A stretch of DNA of 45,797 bases from an uncultured Clostridia bacterium (GTDB lineage: Bacteria > Bacillota > Clostridia > Oscillospirales > Ruminococcaceae). The notes below the pieces were generated by a model. The model searched no databases. It was not told where the DNA came from and was given only the letters and a program-made list of their open reading frames with translations. Where the stretch lies: NCBI GenBank assembly GCA_947627875.1, contig CANQXS010000021.1, positions 1 to 45,797 on the forward strand, written 5' to 3'. Within the stretch, counting starts at the first letter, position 1. Every line of letters begins with the position of its first letter. Positions 3,389 through 45,505 of the stretch are shown here, piece after piece. Both the position numbers and the translations under genes were made by a program.

Positions 3389-5008
3389 TTAAACCAGTAT
3401 CCAACTCGTTCCCTTGTAACGGTCGGGACCTATGAGCGGCTTTAGAGTGCGGCGCTCGGCGAGCTCCTCAAGGATTATATCGCCGAAGCGGTCGGTCATT
3501 TCGGCTGTCAGCTCTATCTGACCGGCTATAACGGGGGAGCTGTCCTCCCGAAGGATCTTTACGAGCTCTTCCCGAACCTTTTTGCAAAGCTGTCTGAGCT
3601 CTTCAAAATCGGGGTGGGATTTAAAGATGTCCGCGCAGACCTGCGGCGTGCAGTCGGAAGAAATTTTTCCCTCGAATACGAGTATGTCCGGCGTAACGCT
3701 GCCGTCGGGCTCGGTGTGGGCATACACTCCCTCGACGTTTTTCCAGAGGAGCTTTTCGCTCTCCGAGAGCTCCGTAACCTTTCTGCCGTTTTTTATGACG
3801 TCGGCAAGAAGGGTTATCGAGCCCGCAGCAAACTCGACGTCGGGGTTGTCCTCGCTTCCGCCGAAGCCGCAGACGGTCTGCCGCGCAAACGCCATATTAT
3901 CGGTTGCGGTGCTTCGGTTGTCAATCCCTCCGTAGGCGGGGTGGTCGTATTCCTCGAAGCCCACGAGCAGCCATTTTTCGCCGTTTTCGCGGACAGCCGG
4001 CGAGAGCGGGAGGCATTTTGCGCTGCGAAGGACTCCGTCGGCGATATACCAGAGGAGTTCATTGTCGGTTATCCTGCCGTTTCTTATACAACCGAGCGCC
4101 TTTATCTTCGGAAGGGAGTATTCCGCTACGCTTTGCAGCAGGTCGGCACCCTCGTTGGAGCTGCCGATCTGAACGTCATAGAGCTTTTTCTGGATATCGC
4201 GGGAGAGAATGGGGATATTTGTGATATACTTGCCGCCGACCTTTTTGAGCAGAGTCGTGCGGAGGAGCCCTTCTATTTCGTCCTCCATATAGGGCATCGC
4301 GACGCCGAGCGCTATTGCGAGTTCCTCGGCGGTCTCGGGATTGTTGGAGGCTTCGAGGAGAATGTTTTTGGGTATCTTCTTTTTAACCTCGTCAAAGGGC
4401 GAATTGTTTGCGGGGAACCACCCGCTGCCGTTGAAGATCACTTCCTCGGGCTTATAGCTTTTCGGTCCGAATTCTCTTGCCATATTTATTCCTTCTTTCA
4501 GTATTTTTCTTGCACGGAAAAGCCTCGACTTAACCGTGTTTTCGGGGAGATTCAAAGAGCGCGAGATGTCCTTTAAAGAGAGGTCGTCGATATAAAACGC
4601 CGTGAGGATATCGCGGTAATCAGAGGATATAAACGCCAGCTCGCGCCTTATGAGCTTCAGTTCTTCCTCTCTTATCAGCCTGTCCTCGAAGTGTTCCGAG
4701 CCGTCTTCAAGCTCATATTCCGAAATGTCTTCGCCTGCCGAGCGTTCGCGGGTTTTCCTTCGGCTCTCGGCATAGTCGGCATGGCGGTTGCGCGCCACCT
4801 GCCACACCCACGCCGCAAAGTTTTCGGGGCGGACGCCCTTTCGAAGCGCCGCTATGACCGCGAGCGAAATGTCGGAGCAAAGCTCCTCCGCCGCTTGGGT
4901 GCTGCCAGTCTTTCTGAGGCAGAAATAAAAGACCTTCTCCATAAAATCGCGGCAGTATTCGTGAACGAGCCCGTCGGAAGGCGGGAAATCGACCTTTTTG
5001 TCTCTCAC
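3389..5008 (-). CDS. ECF-type sigma-70 factor with winged-helix and large C-terminal domain (copy A)
   Basis: A sigma factor of about 539 residues, far longer than the roughly 170-200 of a plain ECF sigma. Region 2 (HEYCRDFMEKVFYFCLRKTG onward) and region 4 (RRELAFISSDYRDILTAFY, then NLPENTVKSRLFRARKIL) are clear. They are followed by the linker AREFGPKSYKPE, a helix-turn-helix-like segment (NPETAEELAIALGVAMPYME with a KKVGGKYITN wing) and about 280 residues I do not recognise. The start is taken as GTG 5008, nine bases after AAAGGAG; the in-frame ATG at 5017 directly touches the ribosome site and the ATG at 5044 lies upstream of it. There is no anti-sigma gene beside it. It is a tandem paralogue of the next gene and a relative of the one at 27.2 kb. 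The C-terminal part probably acts as a built-in sensor or regulator. Confidence 0.85.
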   Translation of the reverse strand: MRDKKVDFPPSDGLVHEYCRDFMEKVFYFCLRKTGSTQAAEELCSDISLAVIAALRKGVRPENFAAWVWQVARNRHADYAESRRKTRERSAGEDISEYELEDGSEHFEDRLIREEELKLIRRELAFISSDYRDILTAFYIDDLSLKDISRSLNLPENTVKSRLFRARKILKEGINMAREFGPKSYKPEEVIFNGSGWFPANNSPFDEVKKKIPKNILLEASNNPETAEELAIALGVAMPYMEDEIEGLLRTTLLKKVGGKYITNIPILSRDIQKKLYDVQIGSSNEGADLLQSVAEYSLPKIKALGCIRNGRITDNELLWYIADGVLRSAKCLPLSPAVRENGEKWLLVGFEEYDHPAYGGIDNRSTATDNMAFARQTVCGFGGSEDNPDVEFAAGSITLLADVIKNGRKVTELSESEKLLWKNVEGVYAHTEPDGSVTPDILVFEGKISSDCTPQVCADIFKSHPDFEELRQLCKKVREELVKILREDSSPVIAGQIELTAEMTDRFGDIILEELAERRTLKPLIGPDRYKGTSWILV

Positions 5009-5147: not shown

Positions 5148-6764
5148 TCAGTCCGCTGCGCCGCAGTAGAACGCCAGCGTGCAGACCGAGTTGTAAGCGT
5201 CCTCGGGGACTTTGAGCCGCCCCGCGTTCACCTCTTCGCGGACGGTAAGCCCGCGCATATGCGAAAGGGTACCGGCAACGCCGTTGAGCTGCTCCTTAAC
5301 GAGCGAGTTGCTTTCGGCGCGGACCGTCTCAAGAAGCCTGTTATAAAGCTCGCCGTCGAGCTCCAAAAGCTCCTTGAAGAGCGGGTGAGACTTGAAAAGC
5401 TTGGAGCATACGCTGTCGCCGCCATCTGTCCAACGCAAGTCGGGGATCCAAAGCACATCTGGGACTACCTTGCCGTCTTCGCCGACGTGGACCAGCATTT
5501 TCAGCTCATCGACAAACTTCTTTTCCGTCTCGGAAAGGCTGCCGTAGGTTTTGCCGCTTTTGATTATCCCGATGACCGACGGGATAGCGTCTGAATGTGT
5601 GCCAAGTTTGTTCCAATATGCCGCAACGTTGTATTCGTGAGGGACAAAGGCTGAAAGACATCTGCCTGATGCATCGCTCACGAAGTCGTTGCGGCTCACG
5701 AACGGGTCGTAGAAGTCGGTGTCTTCAAAGCCGTAAAAGGTCCAGCTCTCGCCGTTTTCGCGGACGGTCTCGGTCTGTCCTTCGTGAGCCGTTTCCGCGA
5801 CGGTCGAACATTCGCAGACCGCCCACCACTTGATATCTTCGTCGGTTATCCTGTCGGAGCGCACGAAATGCCTGCGTATCTCGGGGATAAGGTCTTCGGC
5901 GATTTTGTCGATGAGCTCCGCGCGCTTCGGCGAGACCTCAAGCTTTATGTCAAAAGCTTTTTTATGGGTCTCGGCGGAGACTATCGGGAAGTTGGTAACG
6001 TATTTGCTGCCTATCTTTTTGAGGAGGGTAGCCGCAACGAGGCGTTCCGCTTCCTCCTCCATATAGGGCGAGGCGATGCCGAGGGCGATGGAGAGCTCCT
6101 CTAAGGTCGCGGGGTTGTCCGAAGCCTCCAAAAGGACGTTCCTTGCAAACATCGTCTGAACCGCCGACCAGGGCAGCCCCGACGGCTGAGAGCCGCTTGC
6201 AACGAAGTTGATGTTCTCGGGCTTATAGCTTTTAGGTCCGAATTCTCTTGCCATATTTATACCTTCTTTCAATAATTTTCTGGCGCGGAAGAGCTTTGTC
6301 TTCACCGTGCCTTCGGGGAGGTCGAGCGATCGCGCTATATCCTTTACGCTTCTGTCGTCTATGTAGAAGGCTATGAGTATATTGCGGTAGTCGCTCGAGA
6401 TAAACGCCAGCTCGCGCCTCAGAAGCTTAATGTCCTCGCCGAGTATCAGTCCGTCTTCAACGCCTCGAGTATCGTCGGGAACGGAGTCGGTCTCGGCGTC
6501 GGGGTCAAAAAGCTCCGAAGCTCTGTGCTTTGCTATCGCCCAGAGGCGGTATCGGTTTTTGGCTATCCTGAATATCCACGCCGAAAAGTTCTCGGGAACG
6601 GTCCCTTTTTTGAGCGCCGTGATTATCTGAAGCGAAATGTCGGAGCTGAGGTCTTCGGCTTCGGTCGGACTGCCCGTCTTTTTAAGGCAGAAGTAAAACA
6701 GCTTCGAGAGGTAATCGCCGCAGTATTCGTGTATCAGGATATCCGCCGTGCTGGCTGCGTTCAT
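5148..6764 (-). CDS. ECF-type sigma-70 factor with winged-helix and large C-terminal domain (copy B)
   Basis: A 538-residue paralogue of the previous gene. Region 2 is at about residues 12-75 and region 4 at about 110-166 (RRELAFISSDYRNILIAFY; LPEGTVKTKLFRARKLL). The linker AREFGPKSYKPE is identical to copy A, and a winged-helix segment follows at about 205-262 (NPATLEELSIALGIASPYME). The remaining 275 residues share short blocks with copy A (RENGE-W---GFE; LFKSHP-F-EL). The start ATG follows AAAGGAGGAG by five to six bases. The C-terminal domain is unassigned. No anti-sigma factor or membrane partner is adjacent, so the fused domain is the likely control element. It is part of a tandem array with copy A and a truncated third copy. 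Confidence 0.87.
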   Translation of the reverse strand: MNAASTADILIHEYCGDYLSKLFYFCLKKTGSPTEAEDLSSDISLQIITALKKGTVPENFSAWIFRIAKNRYRLWAIAKHRASELFDPDAETDSVPDDTRGVEDGLILGEDIKLLRRELAFISSDYRNILIAFYIDDRSVKDIARSLDLPEGTVKTKLFRARKLLKEGINMAREFGPKSYKPENINFVASGSQPSGLPWSAVQTMFARNVLLEASDNPATLEELSIALGIASPYMEEEAERLVAATLLKKIGSKYVTNFPIVSAETHKKAFDIKLEVSPKRAELIDKIAEDLIPEIRRHFVRSDRITDEDIKWWAVCECSTVAETAHEGQTETVRENGESWTFYGFEDTDFYDPFVSRNDFVSDASGRCLSAFVPHEYNVAAYWNKLGTHSDAIPSVIGIIKSGKTYGSLSETEKKFVDELKMLVHVGEDGKVVPDVLWIPDLRWTDGGDSVCSKLFKSHPLFKELLELDGELYNRLLETVRAESNSLVKEQLNGVAGTLSHMRGLTVREEVNAGRLKVPEDAYNSVCTLAFYCGAAD

Positions 6765-24438: not shown

Positions 24439-24609
24439 TAAAAGTTTTCGGTCGAGCCTTTTTCAAAAGGCTCGCGAGGGTTAAGGGGCGAGAAGCCCCT
24501 TACCGCGCCCGCAGGCGCGGAATCTATTGCCAAACAAAAATCAGGAGGGTAGCCCGAATCCGTCCTGTGGACGGTTCGGGCGTAGGGGACCCTATTAAGG
24601 GGTCCCCTG
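24439..24609 (-). repeat. Five-hairpin dispersed element, copy 1
   Basis: Read on the minus strand this gap contains, in order, a GGGGACC/GGTCCCC hairpin, a CCCGAACCGTCC/GGACGGATTCGGG hairpin, then stems with loops TGCG, TTCTC and GA, ending in CCGAAAACTTTTA. The first 69 bases (24541-24609) match 42231-42299 inverted at 67 positions. The last three stems differ from copy 2 by paired changes. No open frame fits it. It lies between pepF and the aldo/keto reductase gene. Confidence 0.8.
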
Positions 24610-30932: not shown

Positions 30933-32111
30933 TCAGTCGCGCTCCTTGTCCGACTTGAGTATCTCGCCGGTCGAGGCGTCTATCTCGTAGTCGTATTCAT
31001 AGCCGTTCGCGTCGAAGCTTACGTCGTAAACGACCTTCGTGCGCTCGCTGTCGAGCTCGGCTTCGAGCCTCGAAACGCCGTCGGCGGTAAGACCTGCGTG
31101 TTCAAGGGCAATCTCCTTTGCGCGGTCATAGCCGATATAGCCGTTTGCGTCGGCTGCCGAGGGGCTGACGTTGGTGCTGTCGCGCTCCTTTTCGTGCTTG
31201 ACTATCTCGCCGGTCGAGGCGTTGATCTCATAGTCGTAGTCGTAGCCCTCGGTCTCGAAGCTTATGTCGTAAACCATAACGCCGTCTTCGCGCTCGAGCC
31301 GGCATTTGAGCTCCCAAACGTCGGCTTCGCTAAGCCCCGCGTGGTCGAAAGCGGCTTTTTTGGCGGCTTCCTCGCCGATATATCCGTCGGCGGCTGTAGT
31401 CGCGGCTGGAGCTGCGGGGGCGGCAGTCGTCGCGGCGGGGGCGGCTTGCTGAGCGGGGACGTTGTTGCGGTCGCGCTCTTTATCTGCGCGGACTATCTCG
31501 CCGGTGACGGCGTTTATATCATAGTCATAGTCGTATTCTTCGGTCTCAAAGCTGACGTCGTAAACCTCGACTCCGCGCTCAACGTCGCGCTCGGCTTCGA
31601 GGTCCCATACCTCCGACTCCGAAAGCCCCGCGTGCTCTAAGGCTATGCGCTTGGCTTCGTCTGCTCCGATAAGCGACGCAGGTATAATTGTTCCTTCGGA
31701 AACGGTCTCCGCTGCGGCTGTAGTGACCTCCTCCGGCGCTTCGGCGGGGGATTCTGGCGCAGTTGTTGCTTTGGGAGCCGTTGTGACATCGGGGACAGAG
31801 TCGAAGTTTGCGGGCGGAAGGCTGTCGAGCTCTCTATGGTTCCTTACTATTTCTCCCGACACCGCGTCGATGTCGTATTCGTATTCATATCCTTCAAAAT
31901 CAAAGCTGACTTCGTAAACTGCGTTCGCGATTTCGCGGTCGAGCTCAACGTCGAGGTCCTTTACCGACGTTTCGGAAGTTACTCCCGCGTTTTCAAACGC
32001 TATAGACTTTGCACTGTCGACTCCGATGTAATTTGCCGGATTTTCGGCGCAGGCAGACAGCAGTGAAAGCGAAAGGATAATTGCCGATGCGATTGCGAAT
32101 AATTTTTTCAT
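30933..32111 (-). CDS. Lipoprotein with four PepSY repeats
   Basis: A 392-residue exported lipoprotein: signal MKKLFAIASAIILSLSLLSAC with the acylated Cys21. Four PepSY units lie at about 27-94, 147-214, 243-311 and 324-392. Each has the form YIG-AK-IALEHAGL followed by VYDVSFE-GYDYDYDI-A-TGEIV. Units are separated by Thr/Ala/Pro-rich linkers. PepSY domains are known as protease inhibitors or chaperone-like parts in propeptides and sensor proteins; the role here is unknown. The linkers and high acidic content suggest an extended cell-surface protein. It has its own promoter. Confidence 0.92.
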   Translation of the reverse strand: MKKLFAIASAIILSLSLLSACAENPANYIGVDSAKSIAFENAGVTSETSVKDLDVELDREIANAVYEVSFDFEGYEYEYDIDAVSGEIVRNHRELDSLPPANFDSVPDVTTAPKATTAPESPAEAPEEVTTAAAETVSEGTIIPASLIGADEAKRIALEHAGLSESEVWDLEAERDVERGVEVYDVSFETEEYDYDYDINAVTGEIVRADKERDRNNVPAQQAAPAATTAAPAAPAATTAADGYIGEEAAKKAAFDHAGLSEADVWELKCRLEREDGVMVYDISFETEGYDYDYEINASTGEIVKHEKERDSTNVSPSAADANGYIGYDRAKEIALEHAGLTADGVSRLEAELDSERTKVVYDVSFDANGYEYDYEIDASTGEILKSDKERD

Positions 32112-41854: not shown

Positions 41855-41965
41855 AAAAAACTCCTTTCAGCGGTTTACCCGTATATGTTACCACACCCGC
41901 GCGGATTTTTCAACCCCGAAGAGGAGATTTTTGATAACGGGAGAACAATTTTTAAGGGAAGCCAA

Positions 41966-42020
41966 AATACCCCTCCCCTCGAGGGGAGGGGTCGGTTGTT
42001 CGCCGAACGGTGAACGACCG
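41966..42020 (+). repeat. Dispersed repeat with CCCCTCCCCTC palindrome, copy 1
   Basis: A 55-base unit that matches 45271-45325 at 54 of 55 positions. It has a perfect CCCCTC/GAGGGG palindrome followed by a GTTCGCC-GAACGGTGAAC hairpin. A diverged third copy is at 37984. Confidence 0.85.
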
Positions 42021-42230
42021 TACACGAAATTCCGGTCGAGAGCGAAGCGAACGACATAGCGACGCCGATTATATTTTCCTTTACAACAAGGTTATGGCGT
42101 CGCTTGTCCCCCTCGCCCTCCGCGAGGGAGAGGGGGCAGGGGGTATGGAAGCAAAAAGCTTCGGCGCCTGCCGAGGTTTTCCCCGCCGATAGGCGGCAAG
42201 CTTTCTATTTGCCTCGCCTTGCTCGGCAAA

Positions 42231-42404
42231 CAGGGGACCCCTTAATAGGGTCCCCTGCGCCCGAACCGTCCACCGGACGGATTCGGGCTACCCTCCTGAT
42301 TTTTAGTCGTATAAGTATTTCGCGCTCTGCGGAGCGCGACCAGAGGCTTCTCGCCTCTGGACTCGTCGCCACCCTTTTGAAAAAGGGTGGATCGAAAACT
42401 TTTA
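42231..42404 (+). repeat. Five-hairpin dispersed element, copy 2
   Basis: In order: CAGGGGACC/GGTCCCCTG (42231-42257), CCCGAACCGTCC/GGACGGATTCGGG (about 42260-42286), CGCGCTC-TGCG-GAGCGCG (42321-42338), CCAGAGGC-TTCTC-GCCTCTGG (42340-42360), CCACCCTTTT-GA-AAAAGGGTGG (42369-42390), then ATCGAAAACTTTTA. It pairs stem for stem with copy 1 at 24439-24609. Stem sequences differ by compensating changes and the loops are the same. Confidence 0.8.
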
Positions 42405-45168: not shown

Positions 45169-45270
45169 AATTCCTCCGAAAATCTTTATTCGCTACGATT
45201 TTACCATATCGGCGGGGAAAATGCAAGAGGGGCAGACCTCGGACCGCCGTACTTATTTTCAAGGAGCCCA

Positions 45271-45325
45271 AATACCCCTCCCCTCGAGGGGAGGGGTCGG
45301 TCGTTCGCCGAACGGTGAACGACCG
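45271..45325 (+). repeat. Dispersed repeat with CCCCTCCCCTC palindrome, copy 2
   Basis: Matches 41966-42020 at 54 of 55 positions. It is followed by different hairpins and then by the same GGAAGC-AAAA--TCGGCGCC block. Confidence 0.85.
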
Positions 45326-45465: not shown

Positions 45466-45505
45466 CTTGCCACTTTTTAAAAAAGGCTTGACCGAAAACT
45501 TTTAC
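45466..45505 (+). repeat. End-module of the hairpin element, third place
   Basis: A T/A-rich stem (GCCACTTTTT with AAAAAAGGC) followed by TTGACCGAAAACTTTTA, the same ending as the full copies at 24.4 and 42.4 kb. Confidence 0.6.

What the first reader, a model, noticed from the sequence alone, without database searches (positions are those of the whole stretch)
24439..24609. Dispersed five-hairpin element with compensatory stem changes (also at 42231-42404)
The minus strand of 24439-24609 and the plus strand of 42231-42404 fold into the same five hairpins in the same order. The first 69 bases match at 67 positions. In the other three stems the sequence differs but pairing is kept: CCGCGCC/GGCGCGG versus CGCGCTC/GAGCGCG, AAGGGGC/GCCCCTT versus CAGAGGC/GCCTCTG, CGAGCC/GGCTCG versus CCACCC/GGGTGG. 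The loops TGCG, TTCTC and GA are identical, and both end in CGAAAACTTTTA. Covariation with fixed loops is the mark of selected secondary structure, so this may be an unnamed structured RNA or a structured mobile DNA unit (REP/BIME-like). It overlaps no gene.
Basis: seen in the sequence. Interest (0 to 1): 0.8.

Follow-up and report, generated by a model that had tools for sequence, protein, structure and literature searches.

The report
Modular multi-hairpin repeat in gut Clostridia
The two matching stretches belong to a family of short, non-coding DNA repeats, each built from a chain of interchangeable hairpins, that is scattered through the spaces between genes of many Clostridia; they look like old mobile DNA rather than a hidden RNA gene, and the enzyme that spread them was not identified.

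Summary
Both copies fold into the same five hairpins, and the same genome holds 43 matches. A model of the last three hairpins finds it in several copies in 10 of 196 genomes sampled across the class, own included. Covariation is strong: 27 of 46 pairs change on both sides, 0 of 500 shuffles do as well. But the RNA reading is weakened. In 27 own copies the changes come from mixing three versions of hairpin 3 and three of hairpin 5, and G·T mispairs do not exceed A·C (15 vs 20), while terminator hairpins in the same DNA show 128 vs 82. The element lies between genes in every orientation and is often absent at matching sites of related species. Close pairs of ends point outward (16 divergent, 4 tandem, 0 convergent), as in REPIN doublets. 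A Y1 (RAYT-type) transposase is absent here but present in 11 of 24 element-bearing genomes, against 1 of 12 element-free ones in the genus, so that link stays open. Best reading: a new REP/BIME/BOX-like modular, non-autonomous repeat. Rfam has no match.

The parts
24439..24609 (-). Copy 1, five-hairpin unit (hp1 24584-24608, hp2 24553-24580, hp3 24503-24520, hp4 24482-24502, hp5 24453-24474, tail ACCGAAAACTTTTA 24439-24452)
42231..42404 (+). Copy 2, five-hairpin unit (hp1 42232-42256, hp2 42260-42287, hp3 42320-42339, hp4 42340-42360, hp5 42369-42390, tail 42391-42404)
42208..42230 (+). Extra 5' hairpin TTTGCC...GGCAAA directly upstream of copy 2; seen in front of many complete copies of the genus, absent from copy 1
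41960..42020 (+). Upstream repeat unit 'D5' (two palindromes); second copy at 45265-45325 and some 25 more matches in the genome
42108..42200 (+). Further upstream palindromic modules between D5 and copy 2 (42108-42136 and about 42184-42197)
45475..45504 (+). Solo 3' end (second half of hp5 plus CGAAAACTTTTA) behind another D5 unit
45265..45325 (+). Second D5 unit, upstream of the solo 3' end

Best explanation
The element is a modular, non-coding, non-autonomous DNA repeat, a relative in kind of REP/BIME and BOX elements. SHOWN: it is a chain of near-perfect palindromes with one fixed end (hairpin 5 plus CGAAAACTTTTA); it sits in intergenic DNA without orientation preference; it is often absent at matching sites of related species; and in this genome its hairpins 3 and 5 come as a few stock versions that are mixed between copies. 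In relatives, when two ends lie close together they nearly always point outward. INFERRED: it was spread as a single-stranded, hairpin-bearing DNA intermediate by an enzyme acting in trans that recognises the hp5/CGAAAACTTTTA end, possibly as an inverted pair, single copies being halves or remnants. Recombination or template switching between copies swaps whole hairpins and keeps each palindrome near perfect, which gives covariation without selection on an RNA. In this genome spreading is not recent.
For: 43 matches in the own genome; 45 three-prime ends vs 1 for the reversed-pattern control; 13 of 25 genomes of the genus, own included. Neighbour-gene orientation ++24, --24, -+19, +-17 among the 84 of 94 ends with both neighbours called; none inside a called gene. 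No neighbouring gene family recurs as a mobiliser (521 proteins round 215 ends). Of 28 ends with both flanks matched in another locus, the strict end pattern finds no end in the partner for 18 (see against). Own genome: 27 of 40 ends could be typed: 3 hp3 versions, 3 hp5 versions plus one mixed hp5 form, 8 of 9 combinations. Stems: 248 distinct from 213 copies, 193 perfect, G.T 15 vs A.C 20; terminator control 128 vs 82, p=0.002. Close pairs: 16 divergent, 4 tandem, 0 convergent (p=4e-7 against one in four). Patchy class-wide spread in several copies each: 10 of 196 genomes, nine families.
Against: No enzyme was identified. Reverse transcriptase is absent from 9 of 14 element-bearing genomes tested; TnpB passes its cut-off in 1 of 30. 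No clean insertion border or target-site duplication could be read. Of the 28 matched sites 10 carry an end in the partner too, and at least two of the 18 'absent' ones hold a related or decayed end (copy 2/L243; L049/L020, whose element overlaps the aligned stretch). No recent burst: nearest own copies at most 94.8% alike, median 89.9% (24 copies). No outward pair among the own genome's 45 ends (positions); the 16 pairs come from a limited set of related MAGs, so they are not independent. Ends in pairs are not more alike than single ends (27 and 77 ends, 0.799 vs 0.788; 162 of 500 permutations as high), against the REPIN prediction. The mispair ratios of element and terminators differ only at p=0.06. 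Within well-paired helices of the alignment A.C exceeds G.T (24 vs 10 helix variants, 36 vs 10 cells), which would fit an RNA read from the minus strand. hp5 also shows single-pair compensatory changes with three pair types, as an RNA would.
Confidence: 0.57

Rival explanations
1. It is a conserved structured RNA (small RNA or mRNA element, of either strand) that happens to be multi-copy; the covariation reflects selection on the folded transcript.
For: Very strong covariation: 27 of 46 pairs on A1 and 14 of 25 on A2 change on both sides, 0 of 500 shuffles for either, slid controls far lower. Loop TGCG closed by C-G in hp3 is nearly invariant. In several distant hosts the hp4-hp5 core lies just behind a stop codon. 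A.C exceeds G.T in well-paired helices of the alignment (24 vs 10 variants), i.e. G.U on the minus strand.
Against: No G.U excess on the plus strand, and the alignment-free count shows no strand bias (15 vs 20, p=0.5) although terminators in the same DNA do; no gene orientation preference; versions reassort between copies; absent from 12 of 25 genomes of the same genus; no promoter-like site found round copy 1; no Rfam match.
Confidence: 0.15
2. It is a true REP/REPIN-type element mobilised by a RAYT (HUH Y1 transposase) that has been lost from this genome.
For: Y1 genes: 7 of 13 element-bearing but 1 of 12 element-free genomes of the genus (p=0.03); with the wider hosts 11 of 24 element-bearing. 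Two of 16 Y1 loci have an element within 1.5 kb (L145, L150). Outward pairs resemble REPIN doublets, and REPIN hairpins also show compensatory changes (PMC3116915, passages). GTAG stands at the foot of hp2 on the minus strand in 28 of 57 aligned copies.
Against: GTAG missing in 29 of 57. Y1 absent from 13 of 24 element-bearing genomes, among them G000, G009, G022, G053 and the three g18 hosts with many copies. 14 of 16 Y1 loci have no element nearby. The genus association follows clades and is not corrected for kinship. Paired ends not more conserved than single ends. Units are 171 nt with five hairpins, not 20-40 bp.
Confidence: 0.17
3. The units are not mobile: an old palindrome family has been spread and homogenised only by recombination, local duplication and replication template switching.
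For: No recent burst, no identified mobiliser, no clean borders, strong mosaicism with nested modules at varying points.
Against: Dispersal to dozens of unrelated intergenic sites with one fixed 3' end, patchy spread over nine families and frequent site-by-site absence are hard to reach without transposition.
Confidence: 0.11

Closest known systems
BOX elements of Streptococcus pneumoniae (PMC3049150, passages read)
   Same: Modular intergenic repeat of variable length (67-637 bp there) with tight predicted hairpins, many copies, modules gained and lost, regarded as sharing features of non-autonomous mobile DNA.
   Different: BOX is reported to have terminal inverted repeats and target-site duplications; neither was established here. 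The sequences were not compared by a tool. Here the unit has five different hairpins, often more upstream, and one fixed end.
REP / BIME and REPIN (PMC3733652, PMC3116915, passages read)
   Same: Extragenic palindromes, inverted close pairs, compensatory changes, many copies.
   Different: Unit is 171 nt with five hairpins; GTAG tag not constant (28 of 57); no Y1 gene in this genome and in 13 of 24 element-bearing genomes. The main text of PMC3733652 holds no word beginning Clostrid- or Firmicutes.
Neisserial intergenic mosaic elements (mentioned in PMC3049150)
   Same: Composite intergenic elements built of blocks.
   Different: Known to me only from that mention and from recall; no direct comparison was made.

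Membership tests
GTAG REP / RAYT system | GTAG (or CGTC) tetranucleotide at the foot of the palindrome in essentially all members | tested here: not met
   GTAG: 28 of 57 aligned copies, 15 of 22 own rows, looked for at hp2 only; CGTC not counted
GTAG REP / RAYT system | RAYT (Y1 HUH transposase) in the host genome | tested here: inconclusive
   PF01797: 0 in G000; 11 of 24 element-bearing genomes have one, 1 of 12 element-free in the genus; 2 of 16 Y1 loci have an element within 1.5 kb. Whether these Y1 genes are RAYTs or IS200 transposases was not tested
REPIN | Two units as an inverted pair | tested here: inconclusive
   16 of 20 close pairs divergent, 0 convergent, but most ends are single and none of the own genome's 45 ends is in such a pair
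REPIN | Paired units more conserved than single ones | tested here: not met
   0.799 vs 0.788 over 46 nt, 27 and 77 ends; 162 of 500 permutations as high
MITE (DDE transposase derived) | Terminal inverted repeats and target-site duplication | tested here: inconclusive
   Inverted copy of the tail within 700 nt upstream for 23 ends and downstream for 1, of 209 ends (fewer tested on each side, denominators not equal); no duplication readable; flanks not mutually complementary beyond chance (63 copies)
BOX-type modular repeat | Ordered hairpin modules present, absent or exchanged between copies | tested here: met
Structured RNA family | Covariation beyond shuffled controls | tested here: met
   (the control does not correct for kinship)
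Structured RNA family | G.U tolerated over A.C on the transcribed strand | tested here: inconclusive
   alignment-free 15 vs 20, terminator control 128 vs 82; alignment: 51 vs 52 cells, but 10 vs 24 variants in well-paired helices, which would favour the minus strand
Structured RNA family | Discrete transcript | not testable with these tools
   no expression data

The most novel reading that the evidence does not exclude
A class-wide family of hairpin-chain elements in Clostridia that moves, or moved, as outward-facing inverted pairs through a single-strand transposition route that uses neither a RAYT nor a reverse transcriptase, i.e. an unrecognised mobiliser that acts on the hp5/CGAAAACTTTTA end.
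Probability: 0.18. Interest if true: 0.75.

Novelty: new variant of a known kind. Interest (0 to 1): 0.45.

Why it matters
Some Clostridia MAGs carry this repeat in tens of copies per genome, yet Rfam has no match and my literature searches (listings only, plus passages of four papers) showed no description. It is a caution for covariation-based RNA discovery: reassorted DNA hairpins can give high covariation scores without an RNA. If a mobiliser exists, the outward paired ends and the fixed 3' end give a direct substrate with which to find it.

Tried and rejected
Copy-specific inverted flanks: one copy (L095) looked striking, but over 63 copies own-pair scores equal permuted pairs (p=0.58). 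Rejected.

Phage or plasmid carriage: 0 exact 3'-end matches in viral contigs, no match of copy 1 in phage or plasmid records.

Mobiliser next door: no recurrent gene near the ends. Reverse transcriptase and TnpB do not track the element. Other transposase families were not tested.

Retroposon-like 5' truncation: six own 3' ends inspected stand without the hp3-hp4 block (L103, L104, L109, L120, L122, L123), some further ends were not inspected, and one unit lacks its 3' end (L027). That suggests a fixed end, but nine of 14 element-bearing genomes lack a reverse transcriptase match, and the short copies also fit deletion or module loss. Not adopted.

Empty-site reading at copy 1: synteny is broken in the relatives seen. 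Ten other pairs were inspected, chosen for large gap differences, so they are not a fair sample: nine lack the end on one side, none has two clean borders, and at copy 2 the relative L243 is not empty: it shares the D5 unit and a 3' end but has a different middle. The unselected count is (10 of 28 shared, 18 not found by the strict pattern).

hp4 versions were mis-extracted by my script and are not used. In one search, 13 of 40 own and 8 of 54 relative ends were dropped before typing. A1 misaligns shorter hp4 and some hp2 versions, so its cell counts understate pairing.

Full report
Observation. The two stretches are as described. They agree at 67 of the first 69 bases, fold into the same five hairpins and end alike. 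Copy 1 lies between two genes read in its own direction, copy 2 between divergent genes. The window holds a third fragment, a solo 3' end at 45475-45504, and copy 2 is preceded by more palindromes back to about 41960.

Copies and spread. The own genome (2.57 Mb, 50 contigs) has 43 matches. A pattern for the last hairpin and tail gives 45 hits with up to 2 mismatches against 1 for the reversed pattern. Among 41 genomes, own included, 14 match: 13 of 25 of the genus and one weak match in another family. The exact tail occurs in 7 of 295 genomes sampled from the order: two genera of the same family and one stray hit. A covariance model of hp3-hp5 (R1) matches 10 of 196 genomes over the class, own included, in 10 genera and nine families, with 2 to at least 21 matches each; the five weakest genomes reach only 32-41 bits, so their kinship is less sure. 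Equal contig lengths tie G010 and G015 to two of these MAGs. No match in viral contigs, phages or plasmids. No Rfam match at the gathering threshold in the window; the best sub-threshold match over copy 1 was 24.5 bits against a cut-off of 70.

Structure. On 57 copies, 46 pairs are 92.2% paired, 27 show changes on both sides, no shuffle of 500 does as well, and slid pairings reach 34-59%. On 36 copies from wider hosts hp5 is paired in every cell, with two positions that each show three pair types. So pairing is kept far beyond chance.

RNA or DNA. Two results speak for DNA. First, an alignment-free search of 213 copies gave 248 distinct stems, 193 of them perfect; among mismatches G·T is 15 and A·C 20 (p=0.5). 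Terminator-like hairpins in the same loci, found with a similar but not identical rule, gave 128 and 82 (p=0.002). The direct contrast is p=0.06. On alignment A1 the cells are 51 and 52, but in helices that otherwise pair well A·C exceeds G·T (36 vs 10 cells, 24 vs 10 helix variants); that would favour a minus-strand RNA, so the test is suggestive, not final. Second, of 40 own ends 27 could be typed, and they use three hp3 versions and three hp5 versions (plus one mixed hp5) in 8 of 9 combinations. The 'compensatory changes' between the two window copies in hp3 and hp5 are exchanges among these versions. Single-pair changes also exist (hp5), so pairing is renewed or selected pair by pair over longer times.

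Context. Of 94 distinct ends (40 own, 54 from relatives), 84 have both neighbours called: ++24, --24, -+19, +-17; none lies in a called gene. No neighbour family recurs as a candidate mobiliser. Of 28 ends with both flanks matched in another locus, 10 have an end in the partner too and 18 do not by the strict pattern; at least two of these 18 hold a related end (copy 2/L243; L049/L020). Clear absences include L213/L198, L167/L177, L196/L214 and L243 against this window. Borders are rough because other repeats change too; no duplication of the target was established.

Anatomy of the family. The 3' end is sharp in the genus. In a second genus similarity runs on for some 25-45 nt. The 5' side is variable: a TTTGCC/GGCAAA hairpin, the D5 unit, and a nested AATGCGGCG...CGCCGCAT module that enters at different points. 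Of 20 close pairs of ends, 16 point outward, 4 are tandem, none convergent (p=4e-7 against one in four); they come from a limited number of related MAGs, and the own genome has none. Arms of such pairs are 50-74% alike over 190 nt, 73-93% over the outer 45. Ends in pairs are not more conserved than single ends.

Mobiliser. Y1 transposase: none in G000. In the genus 7 of 13 element-bearing and 1 of 12 element-free genomes have a match (p=0.03 without correction for kinship); two of these eight matches are weak. With wider hosts it is 11 of 24 element-bearing genomes; G053, G474 and the three g18 hosts have none. Of 16 Y1 loci, 2 have an element within 1.5 kb. So a RAYT-like agent is neither shown nor excluded. 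Reverse transcriptase: 3 matches in G000 but none in 9 of 14 element-bearing genomes. TnpB: over the cut-off in 1 of 30. Copies in G000 are not recent (nearest pair 94.8%, median of nearest 89.9%, 24 copies).

Judgement. It works like a modular REP/BIME or BOX element. It cannot be filed as a GTAG REP (the tag is not constant, the transposase test is inconclusive), nor as a MITE (duplication not shown). I file it as a new variant of modular interspersed repeats, patchy but class-wide in Clostridia. Literature seen: search listings and passages of PMC3049150, PMC3733652, PMC12306157 and PMC3116915; subscription journals are mostly not held, so absence of a description is not proof.

Noticed in passing
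41960-42020 and 45265-45325: A second repeat unit (D5, two palindromes) with about 25 further matches in the genome, at least ten of them a few hundred bases upstream of a five-hairpin unit or its 3' end in the same direction.
   Followed up: partly
L011, L016, L030, L101, L111 near the element: A palindromic module of about 46 nt, AATGCGGCG...CGCCGCAT, nested at different points of the element, as if itself inserted or swapped in.
   Followed up: partly
3389-5008 and 5148-6764 (-): Two neighbouring paralogous genes with sigma-70 region 2 and 4 domains at the N end and long C-terminal parts.
   Followed up: no
30933-32111 (-): PepSY-repeat protein with four matched stretches; internal DNA repeats of 186 nt.
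   Followed up: no
L171, L177, L217, L258, L268: Ends in a second group of hosts continue as CTTTTAGTTTCTTGACAAGACTTAAAACTTTTGCG, with a -35-like TTGACA pointing outward; possible promoter or palindrome TTTCTTGACAAGAAA.
   Followed up: no
L145:2480-2570 and L150:2071-2165: Elements within 1.5 kb of a Y1 transposase gene (G018) and of a Y1 remnant (G010).
   Followed up: no
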